Below, piece by piece: positions 7,894 to 41,128 of a stretch of DNA of 64,000 nucleotides. How positions within the stretch are numbered: the stretch's first letter is position 1; the number at the start of each line of letters is the position of its first letter. The notes below the pieces were generated by a model, which did no database searches, was not told the origin of the DNA, and was given only the letters and a program-made list of their open reading frames with translations. This DNA is from Lysobacter firmicutimachus (GTDB lineage: Bacteria; Pseudomonadota; Gammaproteobacteria; Xanthomonadales; Xanthomonadaceae): assembly GCF_037027445.1 (NCBI RefSeq), contig NZ_JBANDL010000002.1:3782001-3846000 (forward strand), given 5' to 3'. Both the position numbers and the translations under genes were made by a program.

Positions 7894-9305
<1,412 letters not shown>

Positions 9306-28442: not shown

Positions 28443-28753
28443 GCGCCGACGGGCGATCTCCGCTTCGCCAGCCACCCGCCTCCGCTCCGATCGCTGCCGA
28501 CAGGCCTCGCCCCCGCAGCTCGCCGCCCGTCGGCAAAGCAGCTCGAGGTTCTGTCCCACGGTGAAAAGGGGGCATGGCGATTTGCTGGTGTTCCGCCCAT
28601 CATCCCCCGCCCCAGGCCGTTCGCCCCTGCTGCGCGGAGAAGTTCGGAACCCGAACTGATCTACCATGGCCGGGCACGTCATGGACGACATCGCGACCGC
28701 GCCTTCCGGGCCGGCGCACCGGTGCGTCGTCCGCGCCACCGCCAGGATCCAGG
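28443..28753. other. 311-bp gap upstream of the DUF4153 gene
   Basis: Contains a degenerate AAAGGGGGC ... CATCCCCCGCC pair (28566-28613) resembling the CCCCCT/AGGGGG element at 7.7-7.86 kb. No gene is seen. Confidence 0.4.
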
Positions 28754-30577
28754 ATGCTCCCGTCGCCCGCACTGCCCCGCTCCACCCGCTGGTTCATCGT
28801 CGCCGTCGCCGCGCTGCAAGGCCTGGCCCTGTACGCCACCGGCAAATACGCCGCGGCACTCGGCGGCAGCGGCTTGCCGATCGCCTTGTATGCGTTGCTG
28901 CTGGCGGTACCCGGCGCGATGCTGCTGAGCGTGCAGCGACTGCGCGACCCGCGCTTCTGGCAACACGCCGTCGGCCTGAGCCTGATCATCGCCGTACTCG
29001 GCGCCTGGGCCGCCTGGAGCGCCACCGGCGCGCCGCAGCTAGAAACCGACACCGTGCTGGCGCCGTTCGCGGTCAGCCTCGCCATCGCCTGGTTCGTCGC
29101 CCTGCCCTATCTGCAATGCCGGATCGAACACGGGCGCTGGTGCGCCCCGTATCCGGCATTGTTCGAGCACGGCTGGCAGAACGCCCTGACCCTGGCTCTG
29201 ACCGGCGTTTTCGTCACCATCTGCTGGGGCGTACTCGGGCTGTGCGCGATGCTGTTCAAGCTGATCGGCATCAACGTGTTCGCCGAGTTGTTCTCGCAGC
29301 CGGGCTTCGCCTGGCCGGTCAGCGGCCTGATGGCCGGCCTCGGCCTGCTCGTCGGCCGCACCCAGCAAAAGCCGGTGCAGATCGCGCGCCAGGTGCTGTT
29401 CGCGATCTTCAAGGGCCTGCTGCCGCTGCTGGCCCTGGTCGCGGTGCTGTTCGTGCTGAGCCTGCCGTTCACCGGCCTGGAAGCGCTGTGGCGCACGCGC
29501 GCGGCGACGCTGATCCTGATGTGCGTGATCGCACTGCTGGTGCTGTTCGTCAATGCCGTGTTCCAGGACGGCAGCGGCGAGCCGCCCTATCCGCGCGCGC
29601 TGCGCCGGGTGGTCGACGCCGCGTTGCTGAGCCTGCCGATCTACGCCGGGTTGGGCCTGTATGCGCTCGGGCTGCGCATCGTCCAGTACGGCTGGACCGG
29701 CGACCGCTTCTGGGCCCTGCTGGCCTCGGTGCTGCTGGCCGCCTACGCCTGCGGCTACGCCTGGGCCGCGCTGCGCCCGCGACGCGGCTGGCTGCACGGC
29801 ATCGCCCGGGTCAACGTGATCGTTTCGCTGATCGCGCTGGCGCTGGCGGTCGCGGCCAATTCGTTGCTGCTGGACCCGCACCGGCTCAGCGTCGGCGACC
29901 AGCTCGCGCGCCTGCGCGACGGCCGCGCCACGGTCGTCGATTTCGACCTCAAGCATCTGCGTTTCTACAGCGGCCGCCGCGGCTACCAGGCCTTGCTCGC
30001 GCTGCGTCGCGAGCCGAAGTTCGCCGCCCCGGCCGCGCGCGATGCGCTCGCCGAGGCGATCGCGACGGAGAGCCCCTGGTACAGCCCCGCGGACCGGCGC
30101 GAACAGGCGCCGCGCACCGCCGCCAACGCCTTGCGAAGGATCGCGCGCGCGCCCGGCATCGACCCGGTCGAACCGGTCTGGCTGCAAGCGGTGCTGGAGC
30201 GCAAGCTGTCCGCGCCCGACTGCCTGCGCGAGGACGCGCGCTGCGTGCTGATGGCGCCGGACCTGGACCGCGACGGCGTGCGCGAATACCTGCTGTGCGA
30301 AATCGAGGAATACGGCTCGACCTGCACCCTCTACGCCCTCGACGGCGGGCGCTGGGGCGTGGCCGCGCGCAGCTTCATCGGCACCCGCGAGCGCGGAACC
30401 GAGGCGCTGGAAGCGGCGATGCGGGCCGGCAAGGTCGAGGCGGTGCCGCCGCGCTGGCCGGAACTGCGCTTCGGCGACGGCAAGCCGTTCTCGCTGAACG
30501 AAGACACCTCGCCCCAACGCAGCGAACCGATCGATCAGGCCGCGCTGCAGCGTTTGCGGGAGGTCCCGCGCCGCTGA
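28754..30577 (+). CDS. DUF4153 multi-pass membrane protein
   Basis: A 607-aa inner-membrane protein with about 10-11 predicted helices in residues 10-380 (for example ALYALLLAVPGAMLLSV, ALTLALTGVFVTICWGVLGL, GLLPLLALVAVLFVLSLPF). The segment YGWTGDRFWALLASVLLAAYACGYAW is typical of DUF4153. The last about 220 residues are soluble and include a CASK-like LMAPDLDRDGVREYLLCEIEEYGS stretch with an EF-hand-like acidic loop. Start ATG 28754 (MLPSPALPRS) puts the first helix at the usual distance. The function of the family is unknown. It is convergent with the Rieske gene, only 13 bp apart. Confidence 0.82.
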   Translation: MLPSPALPRSTRWFIVAVAALQGLALYATGKYAAALGGSGLPIALYALLLAVPGAMLLSVQRLRDPRFWQHAVGLSLIIAVLGAWAAWSATGAPQLETDTVLAPFAVSLAIAWFVALPYLQCRIEHGRWCAPYPALFEHGWQNALTLALTGVFVTICWGVLGLCAMLFKLIGINVFAELFSQPGFAWPVSGLMAGLGLLVGRTQQKPVQIARQVLFAIFKGLLPLLALVAVLFVLSLPFTGLEALWRTRAATLILMCVIALLVLFVNAVFQDGSGEPPYPRALRRVVDAALLSLPIYAGLGLYALGLRIVQYGWTGDRFWALLASVLLAAYACGYAWAALRPRRGWLHGIARVNVIVSLIALALAVAANSLLLDPHRLSVGDQLARLRDGRATVVDFDLKHLRFYSGRRGYQALLALRREPKFAAPAARDALAEAIATESPWYSPADRREQAPRTAANALRRIARAPGIDPVEPVWLQAVLERKLSAPDCLREDARCVLMAPDLDRDGVREYLLCEIEEYGSTCTLYALDGGRWGVAARSFIGTRERGTEALEAAMRAGKVEAVPPRWPELRFGDGKPFSLNEDTSPQRSEPIDQAALQRLREVPRR

Positions 30578-30590
30578 ACCCGCGGCGCGG

Positions 30591-31601
30591 TCACAACCGC
30601 ATCCGCACCTCGCGCGGCGCCGCCGGCGGCGCCGCGCCGTCGTTCCAGAACGCTTCGACCCAGGGCCGCACCAGGTCGAGCTCGGTCGAGGCGCCGCGCA
30701 CGCCGGGAAAGCGGCGCAGATTGGCCGACTGCAAACCGAGCACGCGCGCGTCCTGGTCGTTGACCCGTTTCAGAAACGGCCACACCAGCCGCCGCACCAG
30801 CCAGGCCGGCGCCCAGCGGTTCTCCACGTGCAGGCTGGCGAACACCGCCGTGGACGCCGCGCTTTCCGGGCTGAAATGCAGGCTGATCCGCACCGTGCCG
30901 CCGTTGCGGTAGCGATACTCGATCTGCGCGCTGCCGGGCGCGTCGAAGCGTGCCCGTTCGCTGTCGCGCGGCGACTCGAACAGCCGGTACAGCAATCCCG
31001 ACTGCTGCGGCTGGCCGTGATAGCCCACCTCGAACCCGTCCGCGTTCGGCATGAATCGCGCCAGCACCTCGCTGCGCGCACCGCCGCGACGGACCAGGCC
31101 GGGATGGATCCAGTGCGTGTGCAACGGGTCGAGGAAGTTCTCGATCGCATCGACCACGTGCGCCGGCCAGCGGGTCTGCCACAGGAAGCGCCGCGAATCC
31201 GGGCCGAACTCCCGCACCAGCGGCGCCAGCTCGCCCTCGTCGCGGCCGTCCAGGCGCAACCAGATCAGGCCGTCGTGCTCGCGCACGGCGATGCGGCGCA
31301 CGCGCACCGACGGCAACGCGGCCTCGGGCGACAGGCCGGGGATCTCGCACAAGCGGCCGTCGCGGTCGAAGCGCCAGCCGTGATACGGGCAGGCCAGCCC
31401 GTCGCCGGTCGCGCACCCGGCCGACAGCGGCGCGTGCCGGTGCGGGCAGCGGTCTTCCAGGGCGAAGGCCCGGCCATCGCCGGTGCGCGCCAGCACCACC
31501 GGCCGGTCGAGCAAGCGCACCGCGACCGGCGTGCGCCGCAGCCGCTCGGCGCACAGCGCGGCGAACCAGCGCGAGGCATGGCTGGGGTGCCAGTCGATCA
31601 T
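30591..31601 (-). CDS. Rieske [2Fe-2S] non-heme iron oxygenase, alpha-subunit type
   Basis: A 336-aa Rieske oxygenase. The [2Fe-2S] ligands are Cys52/His54 and Cys71/His74 (RCPHRHAPLSAGC and ACPYHGW). The mononuclear iron site is ENFLDPLHTHWIHPG with Asn155, Asp158, His161 and His166. Enzymes of this architecture hydroxylate, desaturate or demethylate small molecules using a separate reductase; none is encoded nearby. The substrate cannot be read from sequence. It begins 16 bp after the acyltransferase gene, as the last member of a three-gene operon (ATP-grasp, acyltransferase, Rieske), which suggests that it oxidises the product of the first two enzymes. Confidence 0.9.
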   Translation of the reverse strand: MIDWHPSHASRWFAALCAERLRRTPVAVRLLDRPVVLARTGDGRAFALEDRCPHRHAPLSAGCATGDGLACPYHGWRFDRDGRLCEIPGLSPEAALPSVRVRRIAVREHDGLIWLRLDGRDEGELAPLVREFGPDSRRFLWQTRWPAHVVDAIENFLDPLHTHWIHPGLVRRGGARSEVLARFMPNADGFEVGYHGQPQQSGLLYRLFESPRDSERARFDAPGSAQIEYRYRNGGTVRISLHFSPESAASTAVFASLHVENRWAPAWLVRRLVWPFLKRVNDQDARVLGLQSANLRRFPGVRGASTELDLVRPWVEAFWNDGAAPPAAPREVRMRL

Positions 31602-31617
31602 CGCGCGCCCTCGCCGC

Positions 31618-32730
31618 TCACAGCGCGAACCGACGCATGATCGGCACGCCGATGTGCTGCGTCGCCGCGGCCAGGAAGGCGATCGCGCGCCGGGTCGCGC
31701 GCGGCAGGTGCCGCGCATACACCGCGCTGTACTCGATCGCCGGCTCGCCGCCGCGCAAACGCTTGAAATGCGCCGCGCCGGCGCTGAAATTGATCGTCTC
31801 GCCGCTGCGCAGCGCGTGCTCGAAGGTGCAGGCGGTGGCCAGCCGATACAGCCCCTCGCGCCGCGGCCGGCCGGTGTCGTAGCCCACGATCGGCGTGGTC
31901 AGACAGCCGCCGAGACGGAACTGCCCGGCCACGCACAGCAGTTGCCCGTCCCGGTCGCGGAAGCCGTCGAAATGCAGCAGTCCCTGGCGGTGCCATTGGC
32001 GCATGAACTCGGCGCGATAGTGCGGGTTGCAGGCCGAATACTTGTCCAGGTACAGGCGCCGGTACAAGTGGGCGATGCGTTCGTAATCGGCCTCGCCGAT
32101 CTCGCCGTTGCCGGCGCGTCCCGGATGCTTGGCCGCCAGGCGCAAGTCCATCGCCAGGTTGTGGCGCCGCCGCGCCAGGCTAGCCACGTCGCGGTACAGA
32201 TACACCTGGCGGCTGCCGATCAGTTCGAAGCCCAGCGCTTGCAACTGCGCCAGCCAGTCGCCGTGCTCGCGCTCGTTGAGCGAGCGCAGCCACAGCGCAT
32301 GCTGCGGCCAGCGCTGGCGCGCGGCGTCGAGCAGTTGTCGCAGCGGCGTCGCCGCCAGCGGCGGATACAGATTGGTCGACAGCAGCCAGTTGTTGATGGC
32401 GACGGCTCGGTCGATCCGCGCCCGCTGCAGACGCCGTGCGCCGAACCGACCCAGTGCGCGCAACGCCGGCGCGGCCCAGGACGGCGCGTAGCGCACCGCC
32501 TCTTCGGCAGCGTAGTCGGCATAGGCGGTGCGCGGCGAGCAGACCCAGGCATTGCCCGGCTCGTCTTCGTTGATCGTCGCCGGCAGGCTCAGCTCGCCCA
32601 CATTCAACATCTCGACCCGAGTGGCGAGATTGGCGATATAACGCTGCGAGTCGCTGCCGACGTGCAACTGCGCGAACGCCGCCGACGCGCGATTGAACTC
32701 ATCCACCGCGCTCGTCGTCGCCGCGCTCAT
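31618..32730 (-). CDS. FemAB/GNAT-like acyltransferase
   Basis: A 370-aa protein with an N-terminal region of unknown fold (includes INEDEPGNAWVCSPRTAY) and a C-terminal GNAT/FemAB-like half: HLYRRLYLDKYSACNPHY, LLCVAGQFRLGGCLTTPIVGYD and ETINFSAGAAHFKRLRGG. Proteins of this type transfer acyl or aminoacyl groups to amines. The start ATG overlaps the stop of the ATP-grasp gene by 4 nt (ATGA), a strong sign of a shared pathway. The donor and acceptor are unknown. The family call is by pattern only. Confidence 0.75.
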   Translation of the reverse strand: MSAATTSAVDEFNRASAAFAQLHVGSDSQRYIANLATRVEMLNVGELSLPATINEDEPGNAWVCSPRTAYADYAAEEAVRYAPSWAAPALRALGRFGARRLQRARIDRAVAINNWLLSTNLYPPLAATPLRQLLDAARQRWPQHALWLRSLNEREHGDWLAQLQALGFELIGSRQVYLYRDVASLARRRHNLAMDLRLAAKHPGRAGNGEIGEADYERIAHLYRRLYLDKYSACNPHYRAEFMRQWHRQGLLHFDGFRDRDGQLLCVAGQFRLGGCLTTPIVGYDTGRPRREGLYRLATACTFEHALRSGETINFSAGAAHFKRLRGGEPAIEYSAVYARHLPRATRRAIAFLAAATQHIGVPIMRRFAL

Positions 32731-33884
32731 AGCTCGGGCAGGTCCTCGCCGTCCCATTCGATGTCGCGCGTCGCCGCCTCGCGCAGGCTGCAGCCGCGGC
32801 GCAGGGCGATGCCGGCATAGGCCGCCACGTCGACCAGCGCGCCCAGGGGCGGCGCGGGGTCGCCGCGCACCGACAGCACGTCCTCGGCGCGCGCCCAGTC
32901 GCGCCGCCACTGCGCACCGCGGCCGTCGCGCAACGCCTGCGCCAGCCCGGGCCCGAGCATGATCGGCGCAATCATCCGCGCCCGGCCCGCGCCCGCATCC
33001 ACGCAGGCCATGTCCGCACCCATCAGCGCCGCCGGCAGCGGCGCACCGGGCACGAACACATGCACGCCGCTGACCGCGCGCGGATTGCATTCCAGCACGG
33101 TCGGCACGCCGTCTTCGCCGACGATCCAGTCGAAGGAAATCTGCCCGCTGAAACCCAGCTTGGCGACAAAGCGCTCGACGAACGCGCGGATCGCCGCGGT
33201 CGGCTGCGGATCGAAATAGAAGCTGGAACTGCGCGCCAGCCGGTACGCCGGCCGATACACCGCGTGCGCCAGCAGCCGGCCACGGTCCGCAATGCCGTAG
33301 GAACACAGTTCGGTGCCGGCGTGGAAACGCTGCGCGACCCAGGTCTGGTCCAGCCCCAGCGGCGCGGCATCGGCCGGCAACCCGTCCGGGTGCAGACGCA
33401 CGTGCACGCCGAAGCGCGAATACTCTGGCTTCAGCACCAGCGGCCGGTCGCCGGCCCATTCTCGCGCCTGCTCCAGGCTCGTCACCGCGACGCTGTCCGG
33501 CACGCGCGCGCCGCAGTCCCGCGCCAGTTCGAGAAACCGCCGTTTGCTGTGCAAGGCGCGCAGGGTTTCGAAGTCCTCGGCCAGCACCCGCACCGAGCGC
33601 GGCAACGCCTGGCGGTAACGCGAGACGGTGAACACCTCCTCGCAGGTCGGCACGATCAGGTCGATGCGCTCAGCCGCGGCGATGCGCGACAGCGCGGCGA
33701 CGAAACCGGCCGCGTCCGCGCGCGGCGACGGCAACCGGTGCGCCCGGAACACCGCGTTCGACCAGGCCCCGAGCCGGCACGACACGCTGTCGGCGACATG
33801 CACCGTCCACGCCGCATGAGCGAAGCTGCGCGCCAGTTCCAGAGCCGCCGGGGCACGCGGCCCCAGGATCAATACATTCGCCAT
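32727..33884 (-). CDS. ATP-grasp carboxylate-amine/thiol ligase
   Basis: A 385-aa ATP-grasp enzyme. It has a Rossmann-like preATP-grasp domain (ANVLILGPRAPAALELARSF), ATP-binding Lys in LVLKPEYSRFG, and the Mg-ATP site in FDWIVGEDGVPTVLECNPRA. Such enzymes form an acyl phosphate and join a carboxylate to a nucleophile, usually an amine. It resembles the stand-alone ligases of natural-product pathways rather than purine or peptidoglycan enzymes. It heads the operon followed by the acyltransferase and Rieske genes. An upstream in-frame start (MGDSERPA) would lengthen it by 15 residues. Confidence 0.88.
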   Translation of the reverse strand: MANVLILGPRAPAALELARSFAHAAWTVHVADSVSCRLGAWSNAVFRAHRLPSPRADAAGFVAALSRIAAAERIDLIVPTCEEVFTVSRYRQALPRSVRVLAEDFETLRALHSKRRFLELARDCGARVPDSVAVTSLEQAREWAGDRPLVLKPEYSRFGVHVRLHPDGLPADAAPLGLDQTWVAQRFHAGTELCSYGIADRGRLLAHAVYRPAYRLARSSSFYFDPQPTAAIRAFVERFVAKLGFSGQISFDWIVGEDGVPTVLECNPRAVSGVHVFVPGAPLPAALMGADMACVDAGAGRARMIAPIMLGPGLAQALRDGRGAQWRRDWARAEDVLSVRGDPAPPLGALVDVAAYAGIALRRGCSLREAATRDIEWDGEDLPEL

Positions 33885-34157
33885 CGTCCATCCCGGCCGG
33901 CACGGCGCCGGTCGTTCGCTATCGCCCATCGCCGGCGTCCCGCGCGGCAGGTGCATTAGGCAACAGGCCGGCGCAAATGGGAACGCGGGTGCGGGCCGCG
34001 CGCCGGTGTCGGGACGGTCCGAGCCATCGCGGCAAAACCGGACCGGCGCCCCACCGCGGCCGCGACGGCCCGCCCGGCATGGCCGGGAAGGCCCGCTGCG
34101 CCTAGGGTCCGCCCCAGATACCCGGCGCCCGCTTCCGGGCGTAGCCTCTAAATTGAC
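33885..34157. other. Divergent upstream region of the ATP-grasp operon
   Basis: GC-rich, without recognisable genes. It must hold the promoter of the leftward ATP-grasp operon and, at its right end, the control region of the 304-aa unknown protein. Confidence 0.4.
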
Positions 34158-34171
34158 TGAAAACGTTTTCA
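34158..34171. promoter_or_regulatory. Perfect palindrome TGAAAACGTTTTCA, LacI-family operator-like
   Basis: A 14-bp perfect palindrome with central CG, the hallmark of LacI/GalR-family operators (compare cre-type sites). A TTGACT hexamer (34153-34158) overlaps its left edge, so a bound regulator would block a -35 element. It lies 51 nt upstream of the ATG at 34222. No LacI-type regulator gene is in the window. Confidence 0.6.
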
Positions 34172-35752: not shown

Positions 35753-36193
35753 CTAAAGACCGAATAGAAAGCTTGACTCACCCTCACCTGCCAAAGCCAA
35801 AGATCTGAGCCCCTTGGCAAGCTCTTCCGCTTCAGAATAATAAATAGCTATCCGAGCCATAGCATAACGCTGCAACACACCCCTCCCTTCTGCAGGAGGA
35901 ACACCAAGTGAAACGGAGAGCTCTAATTGCCCTTGATTTCCCGAGGGAACAACAGACAGGCGAACATGTTCCTGCTGTACAGCAAGACCGTCACTACTCC
36001 AATAACCACCTATCAACAAAGGCAATGCATCTGGAGCAATTGGATAACTCTCAAGAGACTCACAGAACTCAAGCAACTGAGAAAGGGCAAACCAAGCACT
36101 GGCCCCAGCCAGAAAACCGTCGTCCTGAAATCTAAATAAAACCTCAAGACCAACATCTTCGTCAATAATTTTTATATCCAACTTGGCGGCCAC
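35753..36193 (-). CDS. Putative immunity protein of the RHS toxin
   Basis: A 146-aa acidic cytosolic protein starting 15 bp after the RHS stop on the same strand. GTG 36193 (VAAKLDIKII) follows GGAGGGGG; a TTG at 36205 is also open. Visible are an N-terminal beta-rich part (DVGLEVLFRFQDDGF), an amphipathic central helix (FALSQLLEFCESLESY) and a C-terminal helix with EAEELAKGLRSLAL. No family is recognised. It is far AT-richer than the window average, like the RHS tip. Position, size and composition fit a cognate immunity gene, which is inference. Confidence 0.65.
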   Translation of the reverse strand: MAAKLDIKIIDEDVGLEVLFRFQDDGFLAGASAWFALSQLLEFCESLESYPIAPDALPLLIGGYWSSDGLAVQQEHVRLSVVPSGNQGQLELSVSLGVPPAEGRGVLQRYAMARIAIYYSEAEELAKGLRSLALAGEGESSFLFGL

Positions 36194-36208
36194 AACCCCC
36201 TCCAAAAT

Positions 36209-39200
36209 CTACTTGAATTTAAGCTCAACGTTGCCACCCCTCATGTTCGAGAAATAATGAATAACAATCTTACGCGGTGCAGGCCCATGACAAATGCGGG
36301 TATGCTGCATTTTCACCCAGGGCCCTGGACCGTAATGAGCCACCAGCCTTGGCTCATCATTCATGGCCCCCATGATAGCTTCTCCAGCGCCAGCCTTAGC
36401 TTCCGCCAGAGCTAGTTGTTCGCATAGATCACGACCTTGCACGTCCGGAATTGCGGGTTTACAAATCTTTTCCGAATCTGAACCAGACTCGCTTTTTGAA
36501 TCGCCATCAGAGTTCTCATTGGCGGCCCATATAATACCGCCAGCTATTGCAGCGCCTACCGCATATCCCGCCCACTTAGGCCACGCAACATCACTTGGCT
36601 CCGGAATGGCCATGTCTGCTGCAATGAAACCCAAGACACCCTTGGCTCCGTTAACTACCAAACCACTTCGCCCATCCGGATCGATGACGCCAAGCGGATT
36701 CCCATTAACATACGAATAGGTATTAATTCCTCCTAACAGTCCTATTGGATCGGACTCTAGGTACCGGCCACCAACTGCTTCATAGTCTCTGAAGTAGTTA
36801 TAACTGATCTCGCCAGCAGCGTCGTATCGCTGCCCTGGGAATCGCATATCAAACACGAACGCGGTGCCGTCCTGGTCCGAATCCTGATGCGGGATGTCGT
36901 TGCCGAAAGCCTCGCCCTTCGCATTCCAAGACCAAATGGCGACATTGCGGGTCGCGTCGATTACCGTGCGTGGGGTGCCTAGATGATCTGGTTGGACGTA
37001 GTGCAGTTTCTGCGCGGTGCCCACACCAGAAAGGACGCCGACCGGCGAATCGCCCAGCCACAACGCTTGCTGCTTGGTCGCGCCGCTGGCGTCGTAATCG
37101 CCGATCCAGTGCCCAGCTTCGTCGTACAGCGTATAAACCGCGACCGGGCCGCTAGCGCCGTTGCTCGCAGCGACACGCTCGCCCTTGGCGTTGTAGCGGT
37201 AGCTACGCGCGACCACCCCACCCAACTTCACCTGACTCATCCGGTCATTAGCGTTGTAAACGAACTCCTTCGCCGCGCCGCCGATGCTGGTGGTGTTGCC
37301 GACTGCGTCGTAGCCGCGAGCGATGCCGCCCACATCGGTCAGGCGGTGACTGGTGGCCGGGTAGCTGTAGGTCGTGGTCGCGCCCGCGCGCAGCAGGCTG
37401 GTGCGGTTGCCGGTGGCGTCATAACCGTAGGTTTCCAGCGGCGTGCCGGTGGGGCCGTCGCGGGTGATCTTCAGCCGCCCCAGGGCGTCGTAGTCGTACT
37501 TGGCCAGGAACGCGCTCTGCAGGCCGTCCTTGAGTTCGGTCAGCTCGCCGGCTGCGTTGTAGCCGTAGCCCAGCGACAGGCCGCCGGCGGCCGGGTCGAA
37601 GATCGTCTTGGCGCGGTAGTCCAGGTCGTAGGTCCGGCTCAGGCTGCGGCCGTTGCCGTAGGTCCAGCCCGTGGCCGGGCCGAACGGCAGGTAGCCGACG
37701 TTGTTCAGCAGCACGCTGCGCACGCCGCCGGCCGGGGTGACGCCGATCTCGACGATGCGGCTCTGGGCGTCGCGCACGTAGTCGGCGACTGCGCCGTCCG
37801 GGTAGGTCAACGCGCTCAGTTCGCCGGCCGGGGTGTAGGCGTAGCGCAGGGTGAAGGACTGCGCGTCGACCGACTGCACCTTGCGCACCACCCGGCCGAA
37901 GCGGTCGTAGCAGTACTTCAGCTCGGTGCCTTCGGTGCGCATCGCGGTGACCCGGCCGACGGCGAAGGTTTCGCCGGTGGCGCAGGCGGCGTTGACCGTG
38001 TCGTAGTCGTATTCGACGTCGTTGCTACCCGAGCCATAGGACACGGTCTTCGGCCGGCCCAGCGCGTCGTAGGTGTAGGTGTGCGGGTTGGCGTCGTTGG
38101 CGTCCTGCTTGGTCGCCACCTGGCCGGCGGCATTGAAGGTGCGGGTGGTGACGCCGGTGTCCGGGCTCGACAGCTGGACCTGGTCGCCGAAGCCGTTGTA
38201 GCCGTAGGTCGTGCTCAGCCCCTTCGGGTCGTTGACCTGGGTCAGGCGGTCGAGCGCGTCGTACTGGTACTCGATCTTGGCGTTGATGCCGCCGACGTCC
38301 TGCAGGGTCTTGGCCAGGCGGTTCAGCGGGTCGTAGTCGCTATCGGTCTTGCGGTTCAACGCATCGGTGGTCAGGTCGGCGTTGCCGGCCACGTCGTAGG
38401 TGAACGCAGTCGGATGGCCGTCCGCGGTCTTGGCGGTCTTGAGCTGGCCGAGCTGGTTGTAGATCCGCGACAGGGTGCGCTTGAGCGCGCCGTTGGCGTC
38501 GCGGGTGTCTTCCTGGGTGCGGTTGCCGGCGGCATCGACGGTGTAGTGGATGCGGTTGCCGGCGTTGTCGTAGATGTCGCTCAGCCGGTGCGCCGCGTCG
38601 TAGTCGTAGCGGACGAAGGCGCCGTCGGGTTGGATCACCTTCTTGACCTGGCCGATCAGGTCGTACTCGTAGCGGGTGATCACGTCGTCGGCTTCGGACG
38701 CCGCGTTGGTACCACGCACCTTGCTGGCCTTGAGCCAGCCGCGCGGGTAGTACTCCAGGTCGGTGACCACGCCGTTGGCGTCCTTGCTCGACAACAGGCG
38801 GCCGCTGGCGTCGTAGCGCAAGTATTCGGTGACGTGGCCGAGCGCGTCGGCAACCTTCCACAGGTCGCCCTTGCGATAGGCGCAGGTCGCCGGCGCGCTC
38901 ACGCAGGCCGGGTCGTCGCTGGCGTAGTAGGTGTAGCGGGCGACGTCGGCCACGTCGCTGCGCGGGCCGTCGACCGACTTGAGCAGGCCGACGATCGGGC
39001 AGGCCCCGGCGGTCACGTCCGCGGCTTCGCAGTAGCTGGTCGTGGTGGTGCGCTCGGCATTGGTGGCCGGGTCGACCTGGGTCGAGGTCAGGCGCTGGCC
39101 GCGGTCGTTGTAGGTCCATTTGGACTTGGCGACCAGGGCGTTAGCGTTGTTGAGGGTGCGGCGCTCGGTCGGCAGCGTATAACCCGGGTTCCAGTCGGTC

Positions 39201-41098
39201 TGGATCGTGCGGGTGACCGGGGTGACGCCCTTTCCGGAGGTGCGGCCCTCGATGCGCACGGTTTCCTGGAATGCATCGTGCTCGTAATCGGTGCGGTAGC
39301 TGCGCTCGTTCTGGCGCGACGAGATACGATTGTTCAGGTATTGCGCCGTAGAAGTGCCGGCATTCGAACCATCCGTAGCCGACAACGCGATGCGAGTCGG
39401 CTGACGGAACGCTTCCGAGGAGAAGTCGTATGTCTTGCTCGAACCGGTCGGCAGTGTGACCGTCACCGAGCCCGAGCTGTTGTAGGTATGGGTGACCTTG
39501 CCGGCCCCAAGCGCATGGTCGCTGATGGTGGTCCGACCCAGCTCGTCGTAGCTGTAAGTGGCATAACGTTGCCCGGCTTCGTCAATGACGCCGGTGAGCT
39601 TGTTGCCCCATAGGGCCGGGTCGCAGCCAGCGATCGCCTGTCCCGCGGCATTGCGGCAGACCCGGTCACTTTCCCCGTATAGATATTCCATGCCCTCACC
39701 GGCCACGGCGCCGCCCTTGCTGGCGTGGGTCAAGCGGCCAGAGGTGTCGTAGGCATACTCCACCAACCAGGCGCCTGCACTGCCGATGCGAGAGAGGCGC
39801 AAACCATCGTCGCCCGGCTTGGCGGCAAGGACTGCCGCATACTGGAAGTTCAGCTCGCGGCCGGACGGACTGCGCACGCGCAGCAGCTTGCCTGCAGCGA
39901 GGCAGCTGCCCGCCTGCACATCGGCCTGGGTGCAGTAGTCCAGGCGGTATAACCGCCCGCCGACTTCGTAGGCGCTGAGCCGACCGGAATCGTCGAACCA
40001 CTCCAGCGAAGAGAAGGTCGACAGACGCCAGCGCCCCTTGTCCGTAGCTACCGCATCGGGCTCGCGGATCATGATTACGCCGGGGCGATTGACCGAGCGA
40101 TAGGAAGTGTCGCTTACCTTGCCCATCAGCTCGTAGTAGCCATCGGAGCGCAGCAAGGTGTTGGGCAGCCCCTGGCGCAGGATCACTCGCGCCGAATACG
40201 AATGCGCCCAATGATCGGTCAGCCCAGAACCCAACTCGAAGTCCCCGACCGAGTTATAGGTCCTGGTGAACGCCTGGCCCTCCCAATCGAAATCTTCCTC
40301 GCGATACTCCTTGTTGCCGGTGGCCGCGACCACGGGGTTGCCATCCTTGCAACAGGAATCGAATTGCTTGGACCGCACAACGATCTGCGCATATACGTCG
40401 TTGAAACAGACGTTAGGCCAGTTGACGCCCGGATTCGGCCATCCCGCGTAGAACAGCATCGGGCACTCGTACCAGTCGCGACGAGCGAAATGCCACTGAT
40501 GAGTCACCGACGGTGTCGGGTTGATGATCAGAAAACGCGCGTTGGCGTCGTTCGGCGAATAGTTTCGCGTCTGAAACAAGAACCGGCCTTCCGGCCCCCA
40601 ACCGGCCGGAGTACCCTCGTAGTACGAGCCCGTGAACTGGCCCGGCGGCGGCGGCGTGGAATAGAGGCTCGATTTGTAGACGTCGACTTCCATCGCCTCC
40701 TCGTCCTTGCACCAGATCTCGCCGTTCGGCGCTGTCTCGCCACCGATCGAGTCTTCAGAACTGCACCCACGCGCACGAGCACCGGCGGTCGACGCTCTGT
40801 AAAAATCGCCCACGTATGTCGGCGCACGCGGTTTGACCCTGTAATCCCGGTTGTAGACGCCTTCAGCCATCGCCCATTCAGCGTTCTTCTCGAGGAACGC
40901 GTTTCCGCGCGGCGTCGCCGGTTCGGTGCGGATATAGCTTTCAGCCTCGCTGAGCGTGTTGAAACACATGCGCTCTTGCGCCGGCATATAGCGCGTAGCG
41001 CAGTACTCATCGGCAGCGCGCGCCCCTCCCGGCACCAGCCAAGCGGCCAGCAGCAAGGAAACCAAGGCGGACAAACGAAGGGCGAAGCTGGCAGGCAT
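36209..41098 (-). CDS. Sec-exported RHS/YD-repeat protein with variable C-terminal toxin-like tip
   Basis: A 1629-aa protein from ATG 41098; a signal peptide (LSALVSLLLAAWLVPGGARA) follows. The N-terminal about 240 residues are Cys-rich and unknown. GNPVVAATGNKEYREEDFDW marks a DUF6531-type entry to the RHS shell. YD repeats (for example YEYDLIGQVKKV, YTYDALGRPKTV) run to the core end RYLESDPIGLLGG ... GNPLGVIDPDG. The last about 153 residues are a distinct tip with a Gly-zipper hydrophobic helix (AGYAVGAAIAGGIIWAA), a Ser/Asp linker and a terminal WVKMQHTRICHGPAP ... IHYFSNMRGG domain of unknown activity. The tip is AT-rich. No VgrG, PAAR or T6SS gene is near, so a secreted WapA-like toxin is likelier. 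Confidence 0.88.
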   Translation of the reverse strand: MPASFALRLSALVSLLLAAWLVPGGARAADEYCATRYMPAQERMCFNTLSEAESYIRTEPATPRGNAFLEKNAEWAMAEGVYNRDYRVKPRAPTYVGDFYRASTAGARARGCSSEDSIGGETAPNGEIWCKDEEAMEVDVYKSSLYSTPPPPGQFTGSYYEGTPAGWGPEGRFLFQTRNYSPNDANARFLIINPTPSVTHQWHFARRDWYECPMLFYAGWPNPGVNWPNVCFNDVYAQIVVRSKQFDSCCKDGNPVVAATGNKEYREEDFDWEGQAFTRTYNSVGDFELGSGLTDHWAHSYSARVILRQGLPNTLLRSDGYYELMGKVSDTSYRSVNRPGVIMIREPDAVATDKGRWRLSTFSSLEWFDDSGRLSAYEVGGRLYRLDYCTQADVQAGSCLAAGKLLRVRSPSGRELNFQYAAVLAAKPGDDGLRLSRIGSAGAWLVEYAYDTSGRLTHASKGGAVAGEGMEYLYGESDRVCRNAAGQAIAGCDPALWGNKLTGVIDEAGQRYATYSYDELGRTTISDHALGAGKVTHTYNSSGSVTVTLPTGSSKTYDFSSEAFRQPTRIALSATDGSNAGTSTAQYLNNRISSRQNERSYRTDYEHDAFQETVRIEGRTSGKGVTPVTRTIQTDWNPGYTLPTERRTLNNANALVAKSKWTYNDRGQRLTSTQVDPATNAERTTTTSYCEAADVTAGACPIVGLLKSVDGPRSDVADVARYTYYASDDPACVSAPATCAYRKGDLWKVADALGHVTEYLRYDASGRLLSSKDANGVVTDLEYYPRGWLKASKVRGTNAASEADDVITRYEYDLIGQVKKVIQPDGAFVRYDYDAAHRLSDIYDNAGNRIHYTVDAAGNRTQEDTRDANGALKRTLSRIYNQLGQLKTAKTADGHPTAFTYDVAGNADLTTDALNRKTDSDYDPLNRLAKTLQDVGGINAKIEYQYDALDRLTQVNDPKGLSTTYGYNGFGDQVQLSSPDTGVTTRTFNAAGQVATKQDANDANPHTYTYDALGRPKTVSYGSGSNDVEYDYDTVNAACATGETFAVGRVTAMRTEGTELKYCYDRFGRVVRKVQSVDAQSFTLRYAYTPAGELSALTYPDGAVADYVRDAQSRIVEIGVTPAGGVRSVLLNNVGYLPFGPATGWTYGNGRSLSRTYDLDYRAKTIFDPAAGGLSLGYGYNAAGELTELKDGLQSAFLAKYDYDALGRLKITRDGPTGTPLETYGYDATGNRTSLLRAGATTTYSYPATSHRLTDVGGIARGYDAVGNTTSIGGAAKEFVYNANDRMSQVKLGGVVARSYRYNAKGERVAASNGASGPVAVYTLYDEAGHWIGDYDASGATKQQALWLGDSPVGVLSGVGTAQKLHYVQPDHLGTPRTVIDATRNVAIWSWNAKGEAFGNDIPHQDSDQDGTAFVFDMRFPGQRYDAAGEISYNYFRDYEAVGGRYLESDPIGLLGGINTYSYVNGNPLGVIDPDGRSGLVVNGAKGVLGFIAADMAIPEPSDVAWPKWAGYAVGAAIAGGIIWAANENSDGDSKSESGSDSEKICKPAIPDVQGRDLCEQLALAEAKAGAGEAIMGAMNDEPRLVAHYGPGPWVKMQHTRICHGPAPRKIVIHYFSNMRGGNVELKFK

Positions 41099-41128
41099 GA
41101 CGGTGTTCTTCCGATGAAAGCGCCGCAA

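What the first reader, a model, noticed from the sequence alone, without database searches (positions are those of the whole stretch)
30591..33884. Three-gene ATP-grasp / acyltransferase / Rieske oxygenase operon of unknown product
Seen: an ATP-grasp ligase, a FemAB/GNAT-like acyltransferase overlapping it by ATGA, and a Rieske oxygenase 16 bp further, all on the minus strand and isolated from neighbours. Known: ATP-grasp enzymes ligate carboxylates to amines, GNAT/FemAB enzymes acylate amines, and Rieske oxygenases hydroxylate or desaturate. Inference: together they build and oxidise a small amide-like metabolite or modify a substrate, a pathway I cannot match to a described cluster. No carrier protein, transporter or reductase is encoded, so housekeeping partners would be used.
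Basis: partly seen in the sequence, partly recalled or inferred. Interest (0 to 1): 0.8.

Follow-up and report, generated by a model that had tools for sequence, protein, structure and literature searches.

The report
Split bacterial lipid-building gene cluster
Three neighbouring genes in a Lysobacter soil bacterium look like one half of a shared but apparently undescribed set of genes that probably builds a fatty molecule and attaches an amino-acid-like head to it.

Summary
The three genes are real and correctly placed: an ATP-grasp ligase, a double-GNAT (FemX/MprF-fold) transferase and a Rieske oxygenase; pairwise dN/dS is 0.10-0.44. They are not a self-contained pathway. In 28 of 34 non-Lysobacter loci read that carry the transferase, the same stretch holds a FabH-type ketosynthase, an OleD-like reductase and an MBL hydrolase; in 10 of the 34 these stand with ATP-grasp, Rieske and an F390-type adenylate-forming enzyme. 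In Lysobacter the cluster looks split: a KAS-SDR-MBL operon lies 175 kb away, and in 20 genomes KAS and trio co-occur (12 both, 1 trio only, 7 neither). That KAS is very divergent and in one genome stands with no trio nearby, so the link is probable, not shown. Elsewhere related KAS genes pair with ceramide-type glycosyltransferases, and DUF3419 (the betaine-lipid family) takes the place of ATP-grasp. This suggests a lipid with exchangeable heads, added here by ATP-grasp and the Fem-like transferase and oxidised by the Rieske enzyme. Product unknown; ten literature searches listed no description. New variant of a known kind; interest 0.6.

The parts
32727..33884 (-). ATP-grasp ligase (385 aa), PylC / GAR-synthetase / L-amino-acid-ligase fold; invariant E265-x-N267-x-R269 motif
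31618..32730 (-). Double-GNAT transferase (370 aa) of the FemX / MprF / Sba18 fold; invariant F322-K323
30591..31601 (-). Rieske non-haem iron oxygenase (336 aa); C52/H54/C71/H74 and E154xxxD158xxH161xxxxH166 plus D284 invariant in 14 of 14 sequences
28574..30577 (+). Convergent DUF4153-like membrane protein; tentative accessory only, beside the trio in 13 of 13 Lysobacter loci and beside the related cluster in L118
33885..34221 (.). Intergenic region between the trio and the divergent gene; holds the presumed promoter

Best explanation
The trio is the head-group and tailoring half of a conserved 6-7 gene pathway that most likely makes an amino-acid-headed fatty metabolite (an aminolipid-like compound). 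Inferred order: the FabH-like ketosynthase (KAS) condenses a fatty acyl thioester into a beta-keto chain; the OleD-like reductase (SDR) reduces the keto group; the MBL hydrolase frees the acid (thioester or lactone hydrolysis); in some lineages an F390-type adenylate-forming enzyme re-activates it; the ATP-grasp enzyme activates a carboxylate as acyl phosphate and joins it to an amine; the Fem-like double GNAT adds a further aminoacyl (from aminoacyl-tRNA) or acyl group; the Rieske enzyme hydroxylates or desaturates the product. SHOWN by computation: the genes, their folds or families, conserved catalytic residues of the ketosynthase, ATP-grasp and Rieske families, co-clustering in Xanthomonadaceae, a second family of the same order, Rhizobiaceae, Paraburkholderia and Paenibacillus, and exchange of partner enzymes around KAS-SDR-MBL genes. 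INFERRED: every reaction, the lipid nature of the product, and that in Lysobacter the remote KAS-SDR-MBL operon supplies the trio.
Confidence: 0.45

Rival explanations
1. A soluble peptide-like secondary metabolite: the ATP-grasp enzyme and the Fem-like transferase successively join amino acids (the second from aminoacyl-tRNA), the KAS-SDR-MBL genes supply only a short acyl starter, and the Rieske enzyme oxidises the product.
For: Fold matches to Sba18/Sbb17 and FemX and to PylC and L-amino-acid ligases. PMC2922099 (passages read) predicts operons with ATP-grasp peptide ligases, an oxygenase-cupin and a Rieske protein. Deinococcus L101/L102 hold, of the cluster genes, only ATP-grasp plus the transferase.
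Against: GT21 and DUF3419 partners point to a lipid acceptor; no peptidase, exporter or amino-acid-modifying enzyme was noticed as a constant member of the loci read, though none was searched for systematically.
Confidence: 0.25
2. In Lysobacter the trio has been uncoupled from the ancestral cluster and decorates a different scaffold; the remote KAS-SDR-MBL operon serves another pathway (perhaps with the divergent PAP2-family gene beside it).
For: Long, unresolved stem of the Lysobacter KAS; KAS-SDR-MBL beside PAP2 without a trio in L143; SDR and MBL kept without KAS in L057 of G005, which has no trio; G006 has the trio without KAS.
Against: 12 of 12 Lysobacter genomes with this KAS also have the trio, read in each; G005 lacks both.
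Confidence: 0.25
3. A degradative or detoxification set in which the Rieske enzyme is a demethylase-like oxygenase and the others are chance neighbours.
For: Rieske sequence matches to N- and O-demethylases NdmA, NdmB and DdmC.
Against: Repeated clustering with ligase, ketosynthase and transferase in distant bacteria and in changed gene orders; no ferredoxin or reductase gene is part of the trio.
Confidence: 0.05

Closest known systems
ATP-grasp / GNAT-fold amidoligase systems for small metabolites (Iyer et al., PMC2922099, passages read)
   Same: ATP-grasp ligases, GNAT-fold ligases and, in one set, a Rieske protein in predicted peptide-making operons
   Different: Those systems centre on methionyl-tRNA-synthetase paralogues or an oxygenase-cupin; the passages read mention no FabH/OleD/MBL module, F390 enzyme or GT21
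FemABX / MprF / Sba18-type aminoacyl-tRNA-dependent transferases
   Different: No PF02388 match reported up to E 1; donor unknown
Ole (olefin) pathway, OleA-OleD
   Same: FabH-family condensing enzyme next to an OleD-like reductase, with an adenylate-forming enzyme in some loci
   Different: SDR far below the OleD cut-off (228.5 and 243 vs 580 bits); KAS scores higher to FabH and CorB chains than to 3fk5/3row/3s21 (that these are OleA is recalled); TIGR02304-type ligase
Aminolipid (ornithine lipid) synthesis, OlsB/OlsA (PMC11631085, passages read)
   Same: Proposed product type: fatty chain plus amino acid
   Different: No PF13444 (OlsB family) match; an ATP-grasp ligase and a dedicated ketosynthase instead
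DUF3419 / BtaA betaine-lipid family (PF11899; the BtaA link is recalled)
   Same: DUF3419 stands in the ATP-grasp position in L100 and pairs with GNAT in L090 and L093
   Different: No DUF3419 match in the part of the window scanned (20001-46000)

Membership tests
Rieske non-haem iron oxygenase (PF00355) | CxH...CxxH cluster ligands and D/E-x3-D-x2-H-x4-H plus Asp iron triad (motif recalled) | tested here: met
   PF00355 73.1 bits vs 20.3; C52, H54, C71, H74, E154, D158, H161, H166, D284 invariant in 14 of 14
ATP-grasp ligase | ATP-grasp fold with conserved ATP/metal residues | tested here: met
NCBIfam PRK06849 (NF005315) | Score over 406 bits | tested here: not met
   302.7 bits
FemABX aminoacyl-tRNA-dependent transferase | PF02388 sequence match | tested here: not met
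   No Pfam match reported up to E 1
FemABX aminoacyl-tRNA-dependent transferase | Double-GNAT fold | tested here: met
FemABX aminoacyl-tRNA-dependent transferase | Catalytic Lys (FemX Lys305) | tested here: inconclusive
   Position inferred only from the ends of the aligned ranges; K323 invariant in 36 of 36
FemABX aminoacyl-tRNA-dependent transferase | Uses aminoacyl-tRNA | not testable with these tools
   Needs an assay
Ole pathway | OleD equivalog score over 580 | tested here: not met
   228.5 (L016) and 243 (L053) bits
Ole pathway | OleB hydrolase and OleC synthetase beside it | not tested
   No dedicated search was run
OlsB-type aminolipid synthesis | PF13444 N-acyltransferase | tested here: not met
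   Transferase has no PF13444 match up to E 1
F390 synthetase-related (TIGR02304), for the extra gene of the long clusters | Score over 251.9 bits | tested here: met
   252.4 bits for the L019 protein, the only one scored
F390 synthetase-related (TIGR02304), in Lysobacter | A gene over the cut-off in the genome | tested here: not met
   0 of 20 Lysobacter genomes over the cut-off; 2 of 20 with weak matches of 42-46 bits

The most novel reading that the evidence does not exclude
KAS-SDR-MBL is a lipid-scaffold module for a bacterial lipid class that my searches did not find described, whose head group is exchanged between lineages: amino acid or peptide (ATP-grasp with a Fem-like transferase, as in this window), homoserine-type (DUF3419) or sugar (GT21 plus UGT-like), with a Rieske enzyme hydroxylating some versions; in Lysobacter the pathway is split into two operons. 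(Lowered from 0.30 to 0.25 on rechecking, because the SDR and MBL of the GT21 loci are much more divergent than their KAS.)
Probability: 0.25. Interest if true: 0.8.

Novelty: new variant of a known kind. Interest (0 to 1): 0.6.

Why it matters
A recurring gene cluster seen in Xanthomonadaceae, Rhizobiaceae plasmids, Paraburkholderia and Paenibacillus, for which ten searches listed no description, implies a shared metabolite in many soil- and plant-associated bacteria. It gives anonymous 'ATP-grasp', 'GNAT' and 'Rieske' annotations a common pathway and links FabH-type condensing enzymes to head-group chemistry. If true it would add a lipid or lipopeptide class and make several genes of unknown function, including 'F390 synthetase-related' ones, testable.

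Tried and rejected
Rejected: (a) the trio as a complete pathway. (b) Plain Ole membership (SDR under cut-off). (c) OlsB-type aminolipid synthesis (no PF13444). (d) Pho-type regulation: a recalled Pho-box-like pattern gave no match in the 420 bp upstream of ATP-grasp in 13 Lysobacter loci. (e) An F390 enzyme elsewhere in Lysobacter: 0 of 20 over the cut-off.

Led nowhere: the ten literature searches (two of them on component families) listed no title or abstract start describing the cluster; only passages of three papers were read. Profile searches of the transferase against solved-structure sequences gave only short, weak matches (miniSOG, ADP-ribosyl cyclase and the like). A FemAB family search of 299 genomes, meant to obtain a sequence for profile comparison, gave 0.

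Errors and limits of mine: the L016 MBL gene was read in a wrong frame (8046-8864); the right frame is 8045-8854, so the MBL_x identities and the L016 MBL rows must be ignored. Gene lists come from a crude GC3/length ORF picker. The plasmid table shows no Rieske gene in L099 but tblastn finds one. One search counts a table retyped. L020 was dropped there because it is the same locus as L087 (contig of 2,634,419 bases in both, overlapping coordinates, identical transferase). The 47 loci are not independent: besides L020/L087, nine further pairs have transferases 95% or more identical, among them L014 and the window. Presence means a tblastn match at 1e-10 within the stretch fetched (5-21 kb; 26 kb of the window); absence there says nothing of the rest of the genome. 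Not opened: plasmid hits H4, H6, H7, H10; of 15 ATP-grasp genomes, three (G000, G113, G228) were in hand, six more were read (G069, G108, G189, G340, G342, G428), six weaker ones were not; of 30 KAS genomes eight stretches were fetched. That G481 lacks the trio genome-wide is inferred from its handle number, which falls among the 198 genomes (these print positives and only some negatives); directly seen is only its 19.9-kb stretch. The KAS tree used 33 of the 41 KAS-bearing loci plus one FabH. The genome search scores only a few first-look candidates per genome, so weak members may be missed.
Full report
The window lies in a Lysobacter genome: the transferase is 99% identical to that of Lysobacter antibioticus HS124 (L014), and the window is G000:C2:3782001-3846000. 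The three genes are present as described, with an ATGA overlap and a 16-bp gap, and are flanked by a convergent gene 13 bp away and a divergent gene starting 337 bp away. GC and GC3 resemble the neighbours' and dN/dS is 0.10-0.44 against four orthologues.

What the proteins are. The Rieske protein has the expected iron-cluster and mononuclear-iron ligands, invariant in 14 of 14 homologues, and is nearest by sequence to N- and O-demethylases such as NdmA and DdmC among solved structures and, over the Rieske domain, to a sterol monooxygenase model. The ATP-grasp protein has the ExNxR motif (15 of 15), a confident model (pLDDT 92.2) and the fold of GAR synthetase, PylC and L-amino-acid ligases. 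The transferase has no sequence family but a very confident model (pLDDT 95.1) whose best matches are the aminoacyl-tRNA-dependent peptide synthases Sbb17/Sba18, FemX and the MprF soluble domain. A review (PMC12945691, passages read) describes catalytic Lys305 in FemX and the essential Lys329, with a contribution of Phe328, in DhpH-C; the family here has an invariant Phe322-Lys323, which falls at that place (322-324) if the ends of the structural alignments are extrapolated. That is suggestive only.

The trio is half of something. Transferase homologues were sought in 60 relatives (13 positive), 198 family members (19 positive), 398 genomes of the phylum (4 positive), the GTDB contig set (7 loci) and plasmids (12 records, 8 opened). 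I read 47 transferase-bearing loci with one uniform tblastn table; they include close relatives. ATP-grasp is in 42, ATP-grasp or DUF3419 in 45, Rieske in 38, the full trio in 37. In the 13 Lysobacter loci only the trio is present. In 28 of the 34 others the stretch also holds a FabH-type ketosynthase, an OleD-like SDR and an MBL hydrolase; 24 hold those with ATP-grasp and Rieske; 10 also hold an F390-type adenylate-forming enzyme. In L146, L147, L149 and L099 the order is KAS-SDR-MBL-F390-ATP-grasp-transferase-Rieske, all on one strand. Gene order differs elsewhere (ATP-grasp on the opposite strand in L019, L080, L081, L096, L097, L103; second gene in Paenibacillus L098), so the grouping has survived rearrangement. 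Misses: L084, L091, L098 and L100 have no detected Rieske gene; L095 has a partial transferase with Rieske only; L101 and L102 have ATP-grasp and transferase only; L090 and L093 DUF3419 and transferase only, on short contigs; L082 the transferase alone.

The family comparison agrees: of 198 genomes, 19 have the transferase and 17 the ATP-grasp family, 16 both; the exceptions are two DUF3419-transferase pairs (G549, G563), a partial transferase (G613) and one ATP-grasp cluster without transferase in an 86%-complete genome (G511). In the wider phylum sample ATP-grasp (15 of 398) is commoner than the transferase (4 of 398); of six further ATP-grasp loci read, three (L117-L119) carry KAS-SDR-MBL-F390-ATP-grasp-Rieske without the transferase and three hold no other cluster gene. 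The transferase and the Rieske enzyme are therefore each optional; KAS-SDR-MBL plus a ligase-like step is the commoner core.

Lysobacter. The genome of the window has a separate KAS-SDR-MBL operon (L053) 175 kb from the trio, beside a divergent PAP2-family gene (Pfam match in the L054 and L143 copies, tblastn match in L053). Over 20 Lysobacter genomes KAS was found in 12 and ATP-grasp in 13; both in 12, only the trio in one draft genome (G006), neither in 7. G005 retains SDR and MBL but has neither this KAS nor the trio. Fisher p is 1e-4, but the species are related, two genomes are of one species, and positives are mostly the larger genomes, so this overstates the evidence. Against it, the Lysobacter KAS is divergent, on a stem of length 1.68 with no resolved position, and G481 has a 69% identical operon with no trio in its 19.9-kb stretch. 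I therefore treat the split-cluster reading as probable (about 0.65), not shown.

How it may work. KAS keeps the Cys-His-Asn triad (10 of 10 including a FabH; triad recalled) and is closest among solved chains to 4v2p (recalled as MxnB) and CorB, then FabH. The SDR resembles OleD, a 2-alkyl-3-oxoalkanoate reductase, at less than half the family cut-off. The Lysobacter MBL protein resembles acyl-homoserine lactonases. Three kinds of partner are seen with KAS, SDR and MBL genes: ATP-grasp (with or without the transferase), DUF3419 (L100), and a GT21 plus UGT-like pair (L144, L145, L148). The L148 ketosynthase groups with those of L146, L147 and L149 (99/97), so the partner changed while the condensing enzyme stayed; but the SDR (34-37%) and MBL (37-44%) of the GT21 loci are much further from the cluster forms than the KAS is (54-62%), so the module there may be a mosaic. 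GT21 includes ceramide glucosyltransferases and DUF3419 the betaine-lipid enzyme BtaA (both recalled), which act on lipid acceptors; MprF, a fold relative of the transferase, also loads amino acids onto lipid (PMC2922099). Together this favours a lipid scaffold with an exchangeable head. All reactions remain inferred.

Comparison with the known. PMC2922099 (passages) predicts operons combining ATP-grasp peptide ligases with a Rieske protein, and GNAT-fold ligases in related systems, but around other core enzymes. PMC11631085 (passages) reviews aminolipids; its pathways use OlsB (PF13444), which the transferase does not match. None of ten searches listed a paper that describes this cluster; the library lacks most subscription papers, so absence there is weak evidence.

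Verdict. Observation confirmed; interpretation partly supported; likely missing partners found. New variant of a known kind (a ligase-based biosynthetic cluster; no NRPS or modular PKS gene was noticed beside it), interest 0.6.

Noticed in passing
window 36209-41128 (-) and 35753-36205 (-): A 1639-aa RHS-repeat protein (PF05593, DUF6531) followed at 3 bp by a 150-aa ORF without Pfam match, in a stretch of lower GC (0.60-0.66): looks like an RHS/YD polymorphic protein with a possible immunity partner.
   Followed up: partly
window 34102-34117 and 34159-34170: An imperfect inverted repeat CTGGGGCGGACCCTAG and a perfect palindrome GAAAACGTTTTC lie between the trio and the divergent gene. The exact palindrome was matched in 2 of 13 Lysobacter upstream stretches; variants of both motifs are seen by eye in most of the others. 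Possibly operators of the divergent gene.
   Followed up: partly
window 28574-30577 (+) and L118:11803-13614 (-): A DUF4153-like membrane protein is convergent with the Rieske gene in 13 of 13 Lysobacter loci and, at 33-35% identity, in the same place next to the cluster of a genome of another family of the same class.
   Followed up: partly
L144, L145, L148: KAS-MBL-SDR followed by GT21-family and GT28/UGT-like genes and an unassigned ORF: an apparently related glycolipid-type cluster in an unnamed genus (g17) of the same family and in family f12.
   Followed up: partly
   Followed up: no
L096, L103: Agmatine deiminase and polyamine ABC-transporter genes lie near the cluster on two plasmids; could hint at a polyamine substrate or be chance.
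   Followed up: no
L116, L120: Relatives of the ATP-grasp enzyme stand beside B12-binding radical-SAM-type and polysaccharide-type genes (L116) or phytoene-synthase/P450/desaturase-type genes (L120), so this ligase family may serve other pathways too (gene names by eye).
   Followed up: no
L015, L017, L032, L085, L087, L089, L092, L094: A GGDEF protein gene is inserted between the transferase and the Rieske gene in these Xanthomonas-type loci.
   Followed up: no
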